Below are positions 13,637 to 51,921 of a DNA stretch of 64,000 bases, piece by piece. The position numbers were made by a program, and so were the translations under genes. Below the pieces are notes generated by a model. That model searched no databases. It had not been told where the DNA came from and was given only the letters and a program-made list of their open reading frames with translations. Source of the DNA: Solirubrobacteraceae bacterium (GTDB lineage Bacteria; Actinomycetota; Thermoleophilia; Solirubrobacterales; Solirubrobacteraceae); the NCBI GenBank assembly GCA_030447505.1, contig JAUJOT010000004.1, positions 331,271 to 395,270 on the forward strand. Reading direction: 5' to 3'. Numbering within the stretch: position 1 is the stretch's first letter; each line of letters begins with the position of its first letter.

Positions 13637-13710
<74 letters not shown>

Positions 13711-13761
13711 CCTCCGAAACCCCTGCAAGGCGGGGCTTTTGGGCGACCAGTCGCAGCGGGG

Positions 13762-29811: not shown

Positions 29812-31215
29812 TCAGCCGCGGGCGACCATGATGGGTCGTTTCGGCTTGCTGCCGTCCTCCCATGCCGCCAGCGTCGCGGCCACGAGCGGTGAAATATCGA
29901 CGGTGGCCTTCTTTCTCGCCCAGACCCATGAATCGCCCAGCGGCCGCGTCGAGGCGCCGGCCACGGCCGCATTTAGTTCCAGGCTGCCGAGGTGGCGCAT
30001 GCGGCGCTCCATGATCGCGTTGTAGAGGATGCCCGCGGCCTGCGCGTACTCACCGGACTTGAACGCCTTCACGGTGACACCCAGCGTGTTGAGCGCCGGC
30101 ACGAGCGCGTTGACCGGGCCGATCGGGTCCAGCCGCACCGGCGCCCGGATGCCCTGCGCACGCACGACCCCAGCCACGTACTCCGCGGCCCACCCGGTGC
30201 CCTCACGGTGCGCCAGCACCTCGACATGCAGCAGCCCGTCGCGCCGCCGGCCGGCAGCGACGACCGCGGTGCGCGAGCTGTCGGGCGCAACGTCGAGCGC
30301 CAGGCGGACCGGACCTACGATTTCGGAGTCGGGGTCCAGCAGCGCGGCCCACAGCTCGAGGTCGATGATGCCCGTCGCCTTGCCCTCCGTGACCGGCCAG
30401 TCGCCGACGCCGAGCCGCTCGACGGCGAAGCTGCGCGCATCGAGCGCCGCCAGCTCCCGCTCGATCGTCTCGGCGGTGATCCGATGCGGATAGGCAGCGT
30501 TGGCCTGCGCCCAAAGCTCTCGGTCCGCGAGCCGGCTCGGATCGCGCAGCAGATCGTCGAGCTCGGCGTCGGCGGCGAACTCGACGAACAGCAGGCCCTC
30601 GGCGCCGGCATGGCCCCGCTCACGGGCGCGTGCGAGCACGACGCCATGCTCGTGCACAACCTGGTCTACAGCGGAGCCGGTGAGCAGCACCTGCGCGTTC
30701 GGGCGGGCGCTGAGGATCGGCAGCAGCGCCGCGAACGCCGCCTCGGGCAGAATCATCGCCTCGTCGAAAATGAGCAGATCGGCGCTGAGGCCGCGGCCGC
30801 CGCTCTTCGTGCGGGTCTTGAAGCGGATACGCGAGCCATCGAGCAGCTCGATGCCCTCCTCGCCGTGCGCGCGGCTGACACGCTCGACCTGCCCCAGCAG
30901 CTCGGGCGTGTCCTCGATGACGTCCAGCAACCGGCGAAACGCCTCCAGCGCCGTCGAAAACTCGTGCGCGCTGTGCACGATCAACCGGCAATCGGGGTCC
31001 AGATACAGCCCCACGAGCGAGCGCGCCACGAGCAGGTTGCCCTTGCCGTTCTGCCTCGGAACGATCGCAATCCCCTCAAAGTGCGCCCAACGGCCGTCCT
31101 CCCGCTGCTCGAGCAGACCGGCTACGAACTCCCGCTGCCAACCGTCCAGGGGCAGACGCGCCCGATCGCAAAGATCCAGGCCCTCATCGACGAGCGAGCC
31201 AGCTGCTACAGCCAT
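29812..31215 (-). CDS. Terminase large subunit
   Basis: DNA-packaging motor of 467 aa. The ATPase domain has a Walker A-like PRQNGKGN near residues 53-60 and Walker B LLIFDEAM at 148-155, followed by the coupling motif LLTGSA. The C-terminal nuclease domain begins near residue 310 (VRLALDVAPDSSRTAVV, metal-binding Asp). It overlaps the HNH gene by ten bases. No small terminase gene was found on either side. Confidence 0.92.
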   Translation of the reverse strand: MAVAAGSLVDEGLDLCDRARLPLDGWQREFVAGLLEQREDGRWAHFEGIAIVPRQNGKGNLLVARSLVGLYLDPDCRLIVHSAHEFSTALEAFRRLLDVIEDTPELLGQVERVSRAHGEEGIELLDGSRIRFKTRTKSGGRGLSADLLIFDEAMILPEAAFAALLPILSARPNAQVLLTGSAVDQVVHEHGVVLARARERGHAGAEGLLFVEFAADAELDDLLRDPSRLADRELWAQANAAYPHRITAETIERELAALDARSFAVERLGVGDWPVTEGKATGIIDLELWAALLDPDSEIVGPVRLALDVAPDSSRTAVVAAGRRRDGLLHVEVLAHREGTGWAAEYVAGVVRAQGIRAPVRLDPIGPVNALVPALNTLGVTVKAFKSGEYAQAAGILYNAIMERRMRHLGSLELNAAVAGASTRPLGDSWVWARKKATVDISPLVAATLAAWEDGSKPKRPIMVARG

Positions 31216-32980: not shown

Positions 32981-33027
32981 TTCCATGGTAAGGAAGGGGT
33001 CATCGGTTCGAGTCCGATGGAGGGCTT
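32981..33027 (+). repeat. attR: 47-bp direct repeat of tRNA-Thr 3' part
   Basis: Perfect copy of 13664-13710. Sequence to its left is prophage, to its right is a second integrase cassette, so this site is also the candidate left border of that element. Confidence 0.95.
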
Positions 33028-33060
33028 TTCGATTTGCAGGGCTTTTGCGTCGGCCCAAGT

Positions 33061-33094
33061 CTCGACCACGGGTCGAGAGGTACCAAACGGGTAC
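33061..33094. promoter_or_regulatory. Cluster of short palindromes upstream of the second xis-int operon
   Basis: CTCGACC-ACG-GGTCGAG (33061-33077) and GTACC-AAACG-GGTAC (33080-33094) are perfect inverted repeats, two bases apart, and AACGGGT (33087-33093) is repeated inverted at 33111-33117. They lie in the promoter region of 33180 and near attR, fitting operator or integrase/excisionase arm sites. Confidence 0.5.
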
Positions 33095-33179
33095 ATTTTC
33101 GCGGCCGCCGACCCGTTCTGCGCCGCGCCGCCCGGCAAGAAGGGGGGGCCAAAATCCGCTCGTAGGCCTCTTGTTATGT

Positions 33180-33458
33180 ATGAGGGGCATTCCGCCCGAC
33201 GCATCGCTGCTGCGGGTCTCGGAGGCCGCCGAGCTGGCCGGGCTGTCGACGCGCGCGATCTACCGCGCGATCGAGCGCGGCGAGCTGCGCGCCGCGCGGC
33301 TGTGCTCGCGCCTGCGGATCCCGCGCGCCGCGTTTGACGAGTGGATCGAGCGCAGCACCGTGCGGCCGGCCGAGCCGCCGGCGACGCCGCCACCGCCGCC
33401 GATGCCCGCCGGCAGCTTCCGCGCGCTGCTCGCGCGCCGCGAGGAGCGCCCGTCGTGA
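33180..33458 (+). CDS. xis: Excisionase-like helix-turn-helix protein of the second element
   Basis: A 92-aa protein: LLRVSEAAELAGLSTRAIYRAIERGEL, a classic excisionase-type helix-turn-helix, then RLRIPRAAFDEWIE and a Pro-rich tail (PPATPPPPPMPAG). ATG 33180 was taken because the frame upstream crosses attR and is not protein-like. The stop overlaps the integrase GTG start. Confidence 0.8.
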   Translation: MRGIPPDASLLRVSEAAELAGLSTRAIYRAIERGELRAARLCSRLRIPRAAFDEWIERSTVRPAEPPATPPPPPMPAGSFRALLARREERPS

Positions 33459-34591
33459 GCGTCGAGCGCCTCGAGCGCGCGAGCGGCGTCGTGTGGCGCG
33501 TGCGCTGGCGCGAGGGCGATCGCAACCGCTCCAAGGTGCTCGGCCGCAAGCGCGACGCCGAGGCCTTCGACGCCGAGCTGAAGCGGCGGCGGCGCACCGG
33601 CGAGATCGCGCACCTCGACGCCGGCAAGGAGACGCTCGCGCAGTTCGGCGAGGACTGGTGGCGGCTATACGCTGAGCCGAACCTCGCCGCGACGACGCTG
33701 CAGGTCTATGCCGCGATGTGGGACGCCTACGTCCTGCCGCAGCTCGGCGCGCTGTCGCTGCGCGACCTGACGCCGACCGTCGTCAACCGCTTCCGGCTCG
33801 AGCTCGAGGCCGCCGGCGTCGGGCGCGGCGCGATCGCCAAGACGCTGACGCTGCTGCAGGGCGTGCTGCAGCGCGCGTGCGAATGGGAGCGGCTGGCGTC
33901 CAACCCCGTGCGCGCCGTGCGCAAGCCGCGGCCCGCGCAGCGGCGCAGCGTCACGCCGCTTGCGCCAGACACCGTCGAGCAGATGCGCTTCTGGCTGCTG
34001 CACCGCGACCTCATGCGCGACGCGACACTCGTCTCGGTCCTCGCCTACGCCGGCCTGCGGCCAGGGGAGGCGTTCGCGCTGACGTGGGCGAACGTCCGCG
34101 AGCGCACGCTGCTCGTCGAGGCGGCGGTGAGCCTCGGCACGGTCGCCGAGACGAAGACGCGCCGGCGTCGCACCATGCGCACGCTCAAGCCGCTCGCCCA
34201 GGACCTCGCCGAGTGGCGCCTGCGCGCCGGCCGCCCGCCGGACGGGCAGTTCGTCTTCCCCGCGCACGATGGTGGACCGTGGTCGCCGGATGACTGGAAG
34301 AACTGGCGGCGGCGGACCTTCTGGCCCGCCGCCGCGGCCGCCGGCCTGACCGGCGCGCGCCCGTATGACCTGCGCCACTCGTTCGTCTCGCTGCTGATCG
34401 CCGAGGGCCACAACATCGTCGAGGTCGCCCGCCAGGCCGGCCACTCGCCGAAGATGGCGCTGGACACCTACGCGCACGTCTTCGACGAGTTCGACCCCGC
34501 CGAGCGCGTGACCGCCGCCGACCGCATCCGCGATGCGCGCAGGGAGATGCAGCGCCGCTGGCGCCAACCGACGCTGTTCGACATCGCATGA
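33455..34591 (+). CDS. int: Tyrosine-recombinase integrase of the second element
   Basis: A 378-aa integrase. The N-terminal arm-binding part is WRVRWREGDRNRSKVLG; catalytic residues are Arg202 (GLRPGEA), Arg307 in PYDLRHSF, His330 (QAGHSP) and Tyr339 (LDTYAHVF). It is not a copy of the prophage integrase; the two differ throughout apart from the catalytic motifs. Starts GTG 33455; its stop overlaps the next gene's ATG (ATGA). Confidence 0.93.
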   Translation: MSVERLERASGVVWRVRWREGDRNRSKVLGRKRDAEAFDAELKRRRRTGEIAHLDAGKETLAQFGEDWWRLYAEPNLAATTLQVYAAMWDAYVLPQLGALSLRDLTPTVVNRFRLELEAAGVGRGAIAKTLTLLQGVLQRACEWERLASNPVRAVRKPRPAQRRSVTPLAPDTVEQMRFWLLHRDLMRDATLVSVLAYAGLRPGEAFALTWANVRERTLLVEAAVSLGTVAETKTRRRRTMRTLKPLAQDLAEWRLRAGRPPDGQFVFPAHDGGPWSPDDWKNWRRRTFWPAAAAAGLTGARPYDLRHSFVSLLIAEGHNIVEVARQAGHSPKMALDTYAHVFDEFDPAERVTAADRIRDARREMQRRWRQPTLFDIA

Positions 34592-35626
34592 GCAGCCCGA
34601 ACGGATACGCCGCCGTGCACCGCTACGACGGCGCCGTCATCGAGCGCGACGAGCGCGAGCAGGTCATCCCGATCGCCGTGCAGCCGCGCGACCTGGCGAT
34701 CGTCCGCGACGTCTGGCGCTACCGCTTCCTGACAACCGACCAGCTGCTCGAGCTGTGGTGGCCGGGCGCGTCGGCAGGCGGGACGGCGCCGGCTCGTCAA
34801 GCTCTTTCGCGCCGGCTACCTCGAGCGCTTCCGTCCCGTCTCGCGCCGCGGCTCGTACCCATGGACGTACCACCTCGGCGCCGACGGGCACCGCATGCTC
34901 GTCCAGTCGGACACGATCGATCGCAGTCACCGCTTCAAGCCGCGCGCGATCTACGACTACGGCCACGTCCTGCACGACCTGCAGCTCAACAACTGGATCC
35001 TCGCCTGGCGGCGACTGCTCGGCCACACGCTGCTGGACTGGCACGGCGAGACCGAGATCCACCCGCCGGCCGGCCTGCGCCGCGACTCACGCGACAGTCG
35101 GCTCTTCGTCGCCGACGGTTCCGGTCGCATCGTCAGCGACCTGCGCGACGAACGACCACGACTGCTGCGACCCGACGCCATCATCGAGGTCGAGGACCCC
35201 GACAGCTACATCCCACTGACGTACTACATCGAGTTCGACCGCACCCGCCGCGTCGACAAGAACTACGACAAGTTCCGCCGCTACGACTGCTTTCTCAACT
35301 ACTGGTGGCACGAAACCGACGTCGGCCTGCTCGACGCGCCCTACGTGATCTTCATCTGCCAGGACCGCGACCACGCCCTGTCGTTCCTCAACGCCGCCGA
35401 CCGCGACCTGACCGGCAACATCGACCGCCACTGGGGCGACGAGCTCGATTGCATCGGCCGCCAACGGATCATGTTCTGCCTCGAGCACAGCATGTACGAG
35501 CACAGCCCGCACGCCTTTCAAGTCCCCGAGCAGCCCCGGCATCGCGACGCGGGCGAGGAGCGACGGCGCCCGATCCGCACCGTGCTGCCCGGCGACCGGG
35601 ACGCGACGCGCAGCACGGGCGCATGA
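34588..35626 (+). pseudogene. Replication-relaxation family protein, frameshifted
   Basis: Matches the actinobacterial plasmid/integrative-element 'replication-relaxation' family. The first frame (34588 to about 34770) reads PRDLAIVRDVWRYRFLTTDQLLELWWPG, the winged-helix start. A second frame (about 34770-35626) continues RRRLVKLFRAGYLERFRP, then RPDAIIEVED, YYIEFDRTRRVDKNYDKFRRYDC, a nuclease-like core, and ends TRSTGA. One base must be restored near 34765-34790. The family is thought to act in replication or transfer of the element; biochemistry is not established. The frameshift may be a sequencing error. Confidence 0.75.
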
Positions 35627-35672
35627 CGACCGAGGTGTATGCGAGCGACTGTCGGAGGTGTACGCTCCAGCG

Positions 35673-35885
35673 GTGGCCAAGCGCACGAACATCAACCTCG
35701 ACATGGACCTCGTGCAGCAGGCCGCACAAGCGCTCGGCACCCGACGGACGACCGACACCGTCCACGAGGCGCTGCGCGACGTGATCGACCGCGCCCGCCG
35801 CGCGCGCCTGGCGCAGCGCGAGTTCGAGGACCTGACGCCCGAGTCGCTTGACGCGATGCGTCGCCCGCGCGGCCGTTCGGGGTGA
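35673..35885 (+). CDS. vapB: VapB-type antitoxin
   Basis: A 70-aa ribbon-helix-helix protein: AKRTNINLDMDLVQQAAQALGT binds DNA and the C-terminal EFEDLTPESLDAM is the toxin-neutralising tail. GTG 35673 with GGAGG at about 35655. Near-repeats CCGAGGTGTATGCG and CGGAGGTGTACGCT lie upstream (35628-35667), a candidate autoregulatory operator. Overlaps vapC by four bases. Confidence 0.85.
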   Translation: MAKRTNINLDMDLVQQAAQALGTRRTTDTVHEALRDVIDRARRARLAQREFEDLTPESLDAMRRPRGRSG

Positions 35886-36307
35886 TCGAGCTGGCCGACA
35901 CGAGCGCGTGGATATGGTCGCGCCGGCGCGCGCATCCGCAGCTGCGCGAGGCGTTCGACACCGCCCTCGTCGACGGACGGCTCGCAACGTGCGACATGGT
36001 GCGCCTCGAGCTGCTCTACAGCGCCCGCAACGCGCAGGAGTTCGCCGAGATCCGCGACGAGCTGGACGCGCTCGTCGACTGCCCGATCCGCGAGGAGCAA
36101 TGGCAGCGCGCGCTGTGGGTCTACGAGCAGCTCAGCGCGCAGGGTGGGGCGCACCAGCGCTCGGTCAAGCATCCCGACCTTCTCATCGCCGCGGCCGCAG
36201 AGGGCGCCGGCATGGCGGTCGTGCACTACGACGAAGACTACGACCGCATCGCCGAGGTCACCGGCCAGCCGACCCGCTGGCTGGCGCCCGCGGGCACCCT
36301 CCGCTGA
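35882..36307 (+). CDS. vapC: VapC-type PIN-domain toxin
   Basis: A 141-aa ribonuclease toxin with the acidic PIN set: Asp6 in ELADTSAWIW, Glu in VRLELLYS near 41, Asp in KHPDLLIAAAA and Asp in YDEDYDRIA. Starts GTG 35882 within the antitoxin end. As stabilisation module it would select against loss of the second element. Confidence 0.92.
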   Translation: MIELADTSAWIWSRRRAHPQLREAFDTALVDGRLATCDMVRLELLYSARNAQEFAEIRDELDALVDCPIREEQWQRALWVYEQLSAQGGAHQRSVKHPDLLIAAAAEGAGMAVVHYDEDYDRIAEVTGQPTRWLAPAGTLR

Positions 36308-36343
36308 GCGGGCGAGCCTGTTGCGCCGTCTCGCGCGCCCTGG

Positions 36344-36371
36344 TGATCTCTATGTGTTGATCTCTAGTTGT
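36344..36371. repeat. Two tandem 14-bp repeats (iteron-like)
   Basis: TGATCTCTATGTGT (36344-36357) is followed directly by TGATCTCTAGTTGT (36358-36371), 12 of 14 identical. The stretch is A/T-rich against a G/C-rich background, 37 bp before the large palindrome. Confidence 0.6.
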
Positions 36372-36407
36372 TGCCCTGTAGGCGTTGCGTCCTGAGCGAA
36401 ACAGTCG

Positions 36408-36561
36408 GCCGCCCCGCCCCCGGCCGAGCACCCGCATCACGCCTGGGCTTTCGAGGAAGGGGGGTCCACCGCTTCGCGCTGGACCCCCCTTCCTCGACCT
36501 GCCACATAAATCAGGCAGGGCAGCCCAGGCGTGATGCGGTGGGGCCGGGGGGCGGGGCGGC
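36408..36561. repeat. T-shaped nested palindrome (three-way junction), candidate origin or processing site
   Basis: Outer arms: CGCATCACGCCTGGGCT (36433-36449) pairs perfectly with AGCCCAGGCGTGATGCG (36522-36538), and outside that GCCGCCCCGCCCCC...GGCC pairs with GGCC...GGGGGCGGGGCGGC with small bulges. Inside are two hairpins: a perfect 18-bp stem (36451-36468 with 36480-36497, 11-nt loop) and a 6-bp stem CCTGCC/GGCAGG (36498-36519). The 154-nt unit can fold on either strand as an outer stem with two side arms. Confidence 0.85.
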
Positions 36562-37018
36562 GGTAAGCGAAGGAGTCGAGCAGGAGCAGGAGTCGGGGGG
36601 AGACGAGCAGGGAGTGGACGGTCGCGCGGGAACGGGATCAGGATCAGGATGAGCGGACGGAGATGAGGACGAGGGGACGGAGTCGCGCGTCGGTGTCTGG
36701 GTCGTTAGGCGTCGTCGGATCGTTCTCGCTCGTGATGCTCGACCTCGTGCTCGCCGTCTTCGCGCCCGGGCCCTCATGCTCGCACCCGAGGCTGCCCCGC
36801 CCGCTCCGCCGGCCGGTGCCCGTCGCCGCCCGACTCGTGCGCGCGGCTTGCTCGCGCATCCGCGCCACGCGGCGCCAGCACCGCTGCCCGCGAGGGATCG
36901 GTGGCGGCAAGGGCCCGCAAACGCGCCAGCGCCACGCGCGGGCTCCTCGCGTCGAGCGCGTGGACCCACAGCTCCATCGCGCCCGACTGCGACGCTCGCC
37001 GCCCGGCCTGCCGAACCC
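36562..37018. other. Purine-rich, repeat-containing stretch without a supported gene
   Basis: 36562-36700 has short direct repeats on the plus strand (GAGCAGGAGCAGGAG, GGATCAGGATCAGGAT, GGACGGAG twice). 36700-37018 has open frames on both strands, of which the minus-strand segment MELWVHALDARSPRVALARL looks most protein-like, but no start, end or family can be defended. Confidence 0.4.
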
Positions 37019-37459
37019 TCACCGTGTGCGCGGCCCGGAGGCAAGCGCACGCAAGTCCGCACGGACCTGCGCATCGCGGCGCTCTGCGGCCTCGTCCAGC
37101 CACCGCCACCGAACGCCGTCGAGGATCTCGAACTCCGCGCGCCCATGATTATCGATCCGCTCGACGTCAAGCGCGACGGCGGCGACGTTGTCGGCACTCC
37201 CAAGCGACTCCAAGACGACTGCGGCGCGCCCACGTGCCGTGAACGCAACGTTGTCTGCGCCGACGAGCGACAACGCCGCGCGCGGATCCGCACGCAACCG
37301 CGTGAGCGATCTGCGGCCATGTCCGAGCGCGAAGAGGACCCGACGCGGGCCGGCGCGGATCGTCGTCGAAACCGGTATCGCGTGCGGCATGCCGACGCCG
37401 ACCGTCGACAGGATCGCGACCGTACCATCGCGCCACTCGGGCAGCTCGCCGGTCGTCAT
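37019..37459 (-). CDS. Pyridoxamine 5'-phosphate oxidase-family (split-barrel flavin) protein
   Basis: A 146-aa protein of the FMN/F420-binding split-barrel family: ELPEWRDGTVAILSTVGVGMPHAIPVS, then RVLFALGHGRRSLTRLRADPRAALSLV and FTARGRAAVV. The 'HAIPVS' and 'SLTRLRADPRAALSLV' blocks correspond to substrate and cofactor edges of the barrel. Such proteins include heme, biliverdin and F420-dependent reductases; which is not visible. Low similarity elsewhere makes the type call moderate. Confidence 0.75.
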   Translation of the reverse strand: MTTGELPEWRDGTVAILSTVGVGMPHAIPVSTTIRAGPRRVLFALGHGRRSLTRLRADPRAALSLVGADNVAFTARGRAAVVLESLGSADNVAAVALDVERIDNHGRAEFEILDGVRWRWLDEAAERRDAQVRADLRALASGPRTR

Positions 37460-50701: not shown

Positions 50702-51921
50702 AAGACGATCGCGGAGCTCTGCAAGGAGCTTGAGGTCTCCGAGCAGACGTTCCATCGCTGGCGCAACCAGTACGGCGGGATGAAGGCCGATGACGTCAAG
50801 CGCCTCAAGGAGCTTGAGCGTGAGAACACGCGGTTGAAGGCGATCGTGGCTGACCAGGCCCTGGAGTGTCAGGCGTTGAAGGAGGTTGCTCGGGAAACTG
50901 GTGAGCCCGGCCCGTCGGCGGGCGGCGGTCGCGATGCTCTGCGACCGCCTGCACGTCAGCGAGCGCTGGGCCTGCCGGGTCTGCGGTCAGCATCGCTCCA
51001 CGCAGCGGCGCGAGCCGATGCCCGCCGGCGATGATGAGGCGTTGCGTGCCGAGCTGCGCGCGTTCTCGGCCAGGCGCCCGCGGTGGGGGTACCGCCAGGC
51101 ACACGCATCTGCAGCAGGAGGGCTGGGAGATCAACCGCAAGCGCGTGCAGCGCGTCTGGCGCGAGGAAGGGCTGCGGGTCCCGCAGCGCACCCGCAAGCG
51201 TCGCCGGCTCGGCGACGCCACCGCCCCCAAGGAGCTGCTGCGTGCCGAGCGCCCCGGGCACGTGTGGGCGTTTGACTTCCAGTTTGACCAGACCGCCGAC
51301 GGCCACGTGCTGAAGCTCTTGAACGTCGTCGACGAGTTCACCAGGGAGGCGCTGGTCATGCACACAGCCCGCAGCGTCACCGCCGATCAGACCGTCGCGG
51401 TGCTGGAGGCACTCGTCGCGGTCCGTGGCGCCCCAACGCATATCCGCTGCGACAACGGCCCGGAGATGACCGCGAACGCGCTGATCGACTGGTGCGCCGC
51501 GCAGAGCACGCTGACCAGCTACATCGACCCCGGCGCACCGTGGCAGAACCCGTTCGTTGAGTCCTTCCACTCGCGCGTACGCGACGAGCTGCTGAACCTC
51601 GAGTTGTTCTCATGCCTCGCCGAAGCCCGGGTCGTGATCGAGGACTGGCGCGAGGACTTCAACCGCCACCGGCCGCACTCCGCCCTTGGCCGCAAGGCTC
51701 CCGCCGTCTTCGCTGCTGCCTGGACGCTACCCGCACCCGCCGCCTGACCCTCACCGCACGGACGCGCGCGGACGGAAGCCCGCCGCTCGGCTCGCCCTCC
51801 GGGCTCGCCTCCGCGGCAGGCTTCCGTCCGCGGCAGCACCTAGCGTGCCCGTACTACATCCACCCGGCTCTCACAGCAGGTGGACCGAAGAACGGGGTCC
51901 GGCCAGCTGTGGCGGCGATCG

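What the first reader, a model, noticed from the sequence alone, without database searches (positions are those of the whole stretch)
36344..36561. T-shaped nested palindrome with iteron-like repeats beside a replication-relaxation gene
Seen: tandem 14-bp repeats, then a 154-nt palindrome whose outer arms (17 perfect bp plus a GC-rich extension) enclose two hairpins, one of 18 perfect bp. The shape recalls viral inverted terminal repeats and hairpin telomeres. Known: replication-relaxation proteins belong to actinobacterial plasmids and integrative elements. Inference: this is the origin, nick or transfer site of the second element, possibly of an undescribed type. A cis-acting RNA structure or a composite of decayed mobile elements remains possible.
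Basis: partly seen in the sequence, partly recalled or inferred. Interest (0 to 1): 0.78.

Follow-up and report, generated by a model that had tools for sequence, protein, structure and literature searches.

The report
Probable conjugation origin with T-shaped palindrome
A 154-base T-shaped palindrome with a set of 14-base repeats beside it recurs in many mobile elements of soil actinobacteria, often next to a DNA-nicking (relaxase) gene, and is most likely the site where the element is cut and handed to another cell, a kind of start site not yet described in this group.

Summary
Window 36342-36403 holds four degenerate 14-bp iterons ending in an inverted half-copy. Window 36408-36561 is a nested palindrome that folds as a three-way (T-shaped) junction, z about -12 as DNA or RNA. 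Two more copies lie in the same genome, and about 16 full-length relatives lie in other Solirubrobacterales genomes. Paired positions change together. In c1, c2 and five other elements a Replic_Relax gene (PF13814, MOBC-relaxase family) lies within 3 kb. Modelling gives this protein a winged-helix domain followed by a PD-(D/E)XK-like nuclease domain, the architecture reported for the MOBC relaxase TraX of pAD1, which binds direct repeats in its oriT. In Svornostia abyssi the iterons and palindrome sit between T4SS/T4CP/relaxase genes and SSB/primase/DUF3072 genes. Best explanation: an origin of transfer (oriT) of MOBC-type ICEs and IMEs, with iterons as the relaxase binding site and the palindrome as the structured processing site. 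Some copies lack a nearby relaxase and may hitch-hike in trans. Nicking, transfer and the nic position are inferred, not shown. A replication or single-strand origin is the main rival. Hairpin telomere, viral ITR, structured RNA and REP-type repeat are not supported.

The parts
13637..13709 (+). tRNA-Thr(GGT), chromosomal target; its 3' part (13668-13712) is the att core
   Evidence: ARAGORN; 43-45 bp copies at 32985-33027 and L009:5272-5316
32985..33027 (+). att direct repeat, left end of the element that carries the palindrome
   Evidence: identical over 43 bp to the tRNA-Thr 3' end
32985..33458 (+). ORF with HTH_17 excisionase-like domain (xis); true start probably downstream
   Evidence: Pfam HTH_17 E 1.3e-12
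33341..34591 (+). tyrosine integrase
   Evidence: Phage_integrase E 1.4e-14
34588..35626 (+). Replic_Relax (PF13814, MOBC relaxase family) gene, frameshifted near 34775 by a 2-nt gap relative to an intact 95% identical copy
   Evidence: PF13814 found as a match in the genome; partial hit on the C-terminal ORF; DNA comparison
35658..35885 (+). small ORF just before the PIN gene, presumed VapB-like antitoxin
   Evidence: gene-finder ORF overlapping the start of the PIN gene; function inferred from position
35882..36307 (+). PIN-domain (VapC-like) toxin gene
   Evidence: PIN E 1.3e-12
36342..36397 (+). four tandem 14-bp iterons, proposed relaxase binding site
   Evidence: same 14-bp spacing in nine other members and element-specific sequence
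36394..36403 (+). degenerate inverted half-copy of the iteron abutting the palindrome
   Evidence: clear in relatives (e.g. GTTCGTCTTAGGAGACGAAC in G372), degenerate here
36408..36449 (+). left outer arm of the palindrome
36451..36497 (+). large hairpin (18 bp + conserved C.C mismatch + 3 bp, loop TTC)
   Evidence: covariation
36498..36519 (+). small hairpin CCTGCC/GGCAGG with AT-rich loop ACATAAATCA
36522..36561 (+). right outer arm of the palindrome
36563..36690 (+). purine-rich non-coding tract following the palindrome, present in 16 of 19 members
   Evidence: 76% purine over the first 100 nt, background frequency 0.0002

Best explanation
The iterons plus T-shaped palindrome are the origin of transfer (oriT) of a MOBC-type integrative mobilizable element. 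After tyrosine-integrase excision from tRNA-Thr, the Replic_Relax protein (winged helix plus PD-(D/E)XK-like nuclease) binds the 14-bp iterons through its winged helix. The adjacent palindrome extrudes or folds when supercoiled or single-stranded, and gives the structured substrate that is nicked and, after transfer, rejoined. A T4SS supplied by a helper ICE, as in the intact Svornostia ICE, moves the strand. Copies without a nearby relaxase gene would be mobilised in trans because they display the same palindrome. Shown: sequence, fold, covariation, family, linkage, gene order, predicted protein domains. Inferred: binding, nicking, strand, transfer, trans-mobilisation.
For: (1) Recurrence: 3 copies in this genome and relatives in 15/101 near and 16/399 class genomes at the search threshold, some of them chance. 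(2) Covariation: six pairs changed on both sides; covariation score 0.137 vs 0.076 in shuffles (0/500 reach it) and at most 0.052 in slid controls. (3) Linkage: a PF13814 gene within 3 kb in 7 of 19 full-length members and at 10 kb in one more. The linked genes fall in two sub-lineages of one well-supported branch (0.996), and the palindrome sub-type follows the sub-lineage. (4) Protein: invariant H..D..ExD; model pLDDT 81 with an N-terminal MarR/MecI-like winged helix; C-terminal domain matches mostly PD-(D/E)XK nucleases including nickase Nt.BspD6I and BstEII (Z up to 8). PF13814 is used as the MobC relaxase marker (PMC5357655); TraX-pAD1 has winged HTH + restriction-endonuclease fold and binds 5 direct repeats in oriT 70-120 bp from nic (PMC12857230). 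(5) Gene order in G036: VirB2/TrbC-like, TrbL-like, VirB4 P-loop (weak), M23/SLT, TraG/TrwB T4CP, Replic_Relax, iterons+palindrome, SSB, RepB-primase/CHC2, DUF3072; ParB and ArdC families follow the palindrome in G016 and G281. (6) Iterons: exact 14-bp spacing kept, sequence element-specific and homogenised within an element. (7) Similar oriTs shared between IMEs and their helpers are known (PMC6414798).
Against: No nic site, binding or transfer was shown. Eleven of 19 members have no PF13814 gene within 10 kb of the sequence examined. The branch holding the linked genes also holds about 13 long PF13814 genes with no such palindrome, and G080's gene has none beside it. PF13814 is widely called replication-relaxation, so a replication role is open. 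SSB and primase genes point away from the palindrome, whereas leading-region genes are reported to be encoded so that the T-strand can be transcribed (PMC11541004); the transferred strand is therefore unresolved. The relaxase-family gene beside this very copy is frameshifted.
Confidence: 0.74

Rival explanations
1. It is the replication origin of the excised circle: iterons bind the Replic_Relax protein or another initiator, and the palindrome is a double-strand or single-strand (primase/RNA polymerase) origin.
For: Iterons and stem-loops are typical of origins; a RepB-primase/CHC2 gene lies 1 kb downstream in G036; a structure-poor purine-rich tract follows the palindrome in 16/19 members.
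Against: No conserved Rep initiator other than Replic_Relax; no primase gene was recognised in the c1, c2 or c3 neighbourhoods examined; position between tra and SSB/primase genes in G036 fits oriT better. The two roles may overlap.
Confidence: 0.14
2. A single-stranded-DNA promoter (Frpo/ssi-like) that lets the gene downstream (ssb, ArdC operon, xis-int) be expressed from entering ssDNA; oriT lies elsewhere.
For: Frpo elements fold into dsDNA-mimicking structures and lie upstream of ssb (PMC11541004); here the palindrome precedes ssb (G036), DUF3072-ArdC genes (G281) or xis-int (c3, G100).
Against: c1 has no same-strand gene called for about 1.4 kb downstream; arms are GC-rich with no obvious -10; the iterons and linkage to Replic_Relax are unexplained.
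Confidence: 0.05
3. A structured regulatory RNA or terminator of the mobile-element operon.
For: Very stable RNA fold.
Against: No credible Rfam match; no excess of G.U over A.C single mismatches (6 vs 7); no strand more stable across members; no T-run after the stem.
Confidence: 0.04
4. A small palindromic transposable element (REP/MITE-like) or hairpin telomere/viral ITR carried by chance near integrases.
For: Palindrome identity (82-90%) exceeds that of flanking genes and ends abruptly in c3.
Against: Few copies (1-4 per genome) and element-associated; iterons on the same side in the members where they could be read; copies internal or at assembly breaks; no match in viral, phage or plasmid collections beyond one chance pattern hit.
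Confidence: 0.03

Closest known systems
oriT of pAD1 with the MOBC relaxase TraX (Enterococcus faecalis)
   Same: Relaxase family with winged HTH plus PD-(D/E)XK-like nuclease; direct repeats as relaxase binding site at a distance from nic; oriT with inverted repeats (PMC12857230, PMC5587640)
   Different: Other phylum; no sequence match tested; here four 14-bp iterons with an inverted half-copy abut a nested three-way-junction palindrome, and the elements are chromosomal
Streptococcal IMEs with PF13814/MobC relaxase
   Same: Integrative elements with a PF13814 relaxase and, in part, a VirD4-type coupling protein
   Different: No oriT of this structure is described in the passages read; host phylum differs; c1/c2 lack a recognised coupling protein
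SGI1 oriT and other helper-mimicking IMEs
   Same: GC-rich 125-bp oriT with several inverted repeats beside mobilisation genes; IMEs sharing a helper's oriT type (PMC6414798)
   Different: SGI1 uses tyrosine-recombinase-like MpsA, not a PF13814 protein
Frpo/ssi single-stranded promoters
   Same: Folded DNA structure upstream of ssb in some members
   Different: Iterons present, linkage to Replic_Relax, not always followed by a gene

Membership tests
MOBC relaxase (PF13814) for the adjacent protein | PF13814 domain above cut-off | tested here: met
   c2 50.6 bits, G036 53.7, G025 62.9, G303 62.4, G281d 38.0 vs cut-off 25.3; c1 is frameshifted, its C-terminal ORF alone scores 17.2, the genomic match 53.9
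MOBC relaxase (PF13814) for the adjacent protein | N-terminal winged helix followed by PD-(D/E)XK nuclease fold with conserved acidic residues | tested here: met
   AlphaFold model pLDDT 81; winged-helix matches at residues 35-118; C-terminal domain matched mainly by PD-(D/E)XK nucleases at Z up to 8.0 (middling); invariant H135, D200, E219, D221
MOBC relaxase (PF13814) for the adjacent protein | site-specific nicking of a cognate oriT | not testable with these tools
   needs biochemistry
oriT | non-coding cis site next to a relaxase gene, with direct and inverted repeats | tested here: met
   met for c1, c2 and five other members; 11 of 19 have no such gene near
oriT | lies at the boundary between transfer genes and leading-region-type genes in a complete conjugative element | tested here: met
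   in one element only, G036 (Svornostia abyssi): T4SS-T4CP-Replic_Relax / palindrome / SSB-primase-DUF3072
oriT | required in cis for transfer; defined nic site | not testable with these tools
   mating and nic-mapping assays needed
hairpin telomere / viral ITR | located at the ends of a linear replicon | tested here: not met
   internal to a 440-kb contig (c1, c2), a 722-kb contig (c3) and a 5.06-Mb single contig (G036)
Rfam RNA family | match above gathering score | tested here: not met
REP/BIME-type dispersed palindrome | many copies scattered in intergenic regions | tested here: not met
   1-4 copies per genome; the copies examined in detail lie in integrative-element modules

The most novel reading that the evidence does not exclude
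The T-shaped palindrome is a new kind of transfer-end structure. No covalent DNA intermediate was observed for the studied MOBC relaxase (PMC12857230), so the folded three-way junction itself would hold, protect and re-align the ends of the transferred strand, letting a nuclease-type relaxase cut and rejoin without a protein-DNA bond; unrelated integrative elements in one cell share this module.
Probability: 0.12. Interest if true: 0.85.

Novelty: new variant of a known kind. Interest (0 to 1): 0.56.

Why it matters
It gives a concrete, sequence-defined candidate oriT for ICEs and IMEs of Solirubrobacterales, where I found none described in the papers searched. It ties that site to sub-lineages of PF13814 proteins whose Pfam name hides a relaxase role. 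It also offers a marker (covariance model plus 14-bp iterons) for oriT-only hitch-hiker elements. How MOBC nuclease-type relaxases find, hold and rejoin DNA is open, and a nested palindrome with adjacent binding repeats makes that directly testable.

Tried and rejected
Viral, phage and plasmid collections: one viral pattern hit (L095) that does not form the structure, none in PLSDB or INPHARED; the c2 relaxase-family protein also has no PLSDB match. Pattern hits in Streptomyces, Hebobacteria and Acrocarpospora (L086, L090, L093) and weak model hits in G119 and G019 were judged chance because they do not form the structure; phylum-wide hits outside the order are short hairpins or weak and were not followed. 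Strand test by wobble pairs and by fold energy gave no polarity. Most PF13814 genes of the class have no strong palindrome within about 4 kb, so 'every replication-relaxation gene has one' is rejected. Sequence search of the PDB with the relaxase profile gave nothing credible. The coupling-protein families PF12696 and PF02534 gave no match in the window's own genome, so self-transfer of this element is not supported.

Full report
OBSERVATION. The sequence shows, between a PIN-domain gene that ends at 36307 and the next called gene (37019-37459, minus strand), four tandem 14-bp units from 36342 (two clear, two degenerate) and a nested palindrome 36408-36561. The outer arms enclose a 47-nt hairpin (18 bp, C.C mismatch, 3 bp, loop TTC) and a 22-nt hairpin with an AT-rich loop. 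It folds as a three-way junction with DNA (-84.7 kcal/mol) or RNA (-142.9) parameters, z about -12 in both. No Rfam family fits.

IT IS A FAMILY. The genome holds two more copies: c2, about 33 kb downstream on the same contig (L009:8027-8190, 90% identity), and c3, on another contig (L010:8761-8935, reverse strand, 82%). c3 replaces GG/CC by CC/GG in the large hairpin, a compensatory swap. A DNA search of 101 relatives gave matches in 15 genomes, and a covariance model of the core gave 16 of 399 genomes of the class and 15 of 146 of the family; a few are chance on inspection. A genome-wide pattern scan names hosts as mostly Solirubrobacterales, among them Svornostia abyssi J379; contig lengths link G036 to that genome. 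In a phylum-wide draw only weak or short hairpin hits lay outside the order.

COVARIATION. On a plain MAFFT alignment of nine cores, 91.5% of cells pair, six pairs have changes on both sides, and the covariation score is 0.137 against 0.076 in shuffles (0 of 500) and at most 0.052 when partners are slid. A second sub-family (G281 x4, G260, G329) keeps the same plan with different outer arms. Single mismatches show no G.U over A.C preference (6 vs 7), and neither strand folds consistently better. This fits constraint on DNA better than on an RNA.

ITERONS. In ten members the palindrome is preceded on the same side by 3-4 units of 14 bp, the last followed in most by an inverted half-copy that abuts the outer arm. 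The unit differs between elements (GTTGATCTCTA in c1, c2, G016, G036; GTTCGTCTCTAG in G003, G372, G100; GTTGGTCTCTAG in G080; GGTTCGCTNTAG in c3) but is more alike within than between elements (0.72 vs 0.61 identity, 0 of 5000 permutations). I set the register of two arrays by hand. This is what a binding site of an element-specific protein would look like. The divergent sub-families have a longer inverted repeat in the same place.

GENETIC SETTING. c1 and c2 lie in elements stacked at one tRNA-Thr: 43-45 bp att copies at 13668-13712, 32985-33027 and L009:5272-5316. Their order is att - xis - integrase - Replic_Relax - (PIN pair in c1) - iterons - palindrome. c3 is beside an integrase at tRNA-Val, with no Replic_Relax near. 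G025 repeats the c1 order at a tRNA-Val. G303 and G260 have Replic_Relax 0.3-0.5 kb upstream of the palindrome, and G281d has it just downstream. In Svornostia (G036) the order is ParA ... TrbC/VirB2-like, TrbL-like, VirB4 P-loop (weak, below cut-off), M23/SLT hydrolase, TrwB/TraG coupling protein, Replic_Relax, unknown ORF, iterons+palindrome, SSB, RepB-primase/CHC2, DUF3072. ParB (G016) and ArdC-N (G281) follow the palindrome elsewhere. That is the relaxase - oriT - leading region layout. Gene calls in these loci come from a simple script, so gene starts are approximate.

THE PROTEIN. PF13814 is used as a MobC-relaxase marker (PMC5357655, PMC12479173). TraX of pAD1 is reported with a winged helix, a restriction-endonuclease-like active site, and binding to five direct repeats 70-120 bp from nic, with no covalent intermediate seen (PMC12857230). 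The c2 protein is modelled at pLDDT 81 with an N-terminal winged helix and a C-terminal domain whose structural neighbours are mostly PD-(D/E)XK nucleases (Z up to 8, a middling value); H135, D200, E219 and D221 are invariant in 24 relatives. In the first tree the linked proteins formed one clade. With 17 more sequences they are two sub-lineages (G303/G281/G260 and c2/G036/G025 and allies) of a larger supported branch whose remaining members lack the palindrome. Palindrome sub-type follows sub-lineage. G003's second gene runs off a contig 144 bp after its end. G078's is followed by what may be a palindrome remnant cut by an insertion (read by eye). The c1 gene is 95% identical to the G003 gene but has a 2-nt gap that shifts the frame; mutation and assembly error cannot be told apart.

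MECHANISM AND LIMITS. The most likely reading is an oriT: Replic_Relax binds the iterons, acts on the extruded or single-stranded palindrome, and the strand leaves by a helper T4SS. Members without a nearby relaxase gene would then be mobilised in trans, as known for IMEs that copy a helper's oriT (PMC6414798). Nothing here shows binding, nicking, polarity or transfer. The purine-rich tract after the palindrome (16 of 19 members; palindrome ends set by eye) and the primase gene in G036 keep a single-strand or replication origin open, and the two functions may coincide. The linkage probabilities use hand-entered distances and the first, smaller tree, and should be read as rough.

VERDICT. A real, conserved DNA feature, probably the oriT of a MOBC-type lineage of Solirubrobacterales elements: a new variant of a known kind, with an unusual nested three-way-junction palindrome.

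Noticed in passing
window 36563-36690 and relatives: A roughly 100-nt purine-rich non-coding tract follows the palindrome on the + strand in 16 of 19 members; function unknown.
   Followed up: partly
window 13668-13712, 32985-33027; L009:5272-5316: Tandem stack of at least three integrative segments at one tRNA-Thr, marked by 43-45 bp att copies.
   Followed up: partly
window 29812-31215: ORF on the minus strand that resembles a phage terminase large subunit by eye, between the first two att copies, suggesting a prophage-like neighbour; not searched.
   Followed up: no
L042:8773-9774 (G016): A Shedu SduA C-terminal-domain protein lies directly upstream of the palindrome, possibly defence cargo.
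   Followed up: no
G025:C1:12, G025:C7:166, G100:C389:184, G316:C114:1: Several palindrome copies sit at contig ends, so assemblies seem to break there and copy numbers are probably underestimated.
   Followed up: no
L197:1-986 (G078): Downstream of a linked-type Replic_Relax gene a possible palindrome remnant (...TCTTCCTCGACGTAG) is followed by sequence resembling an IstB-type insertion element (by eye).
   Followed up: no
window 50706-51905 and 62.5-63.2 kb; L010:17277-17935: Near-identical (99%) repeats, probably one insertion sequence, occur in both regions of this genome.
   Followed up: no
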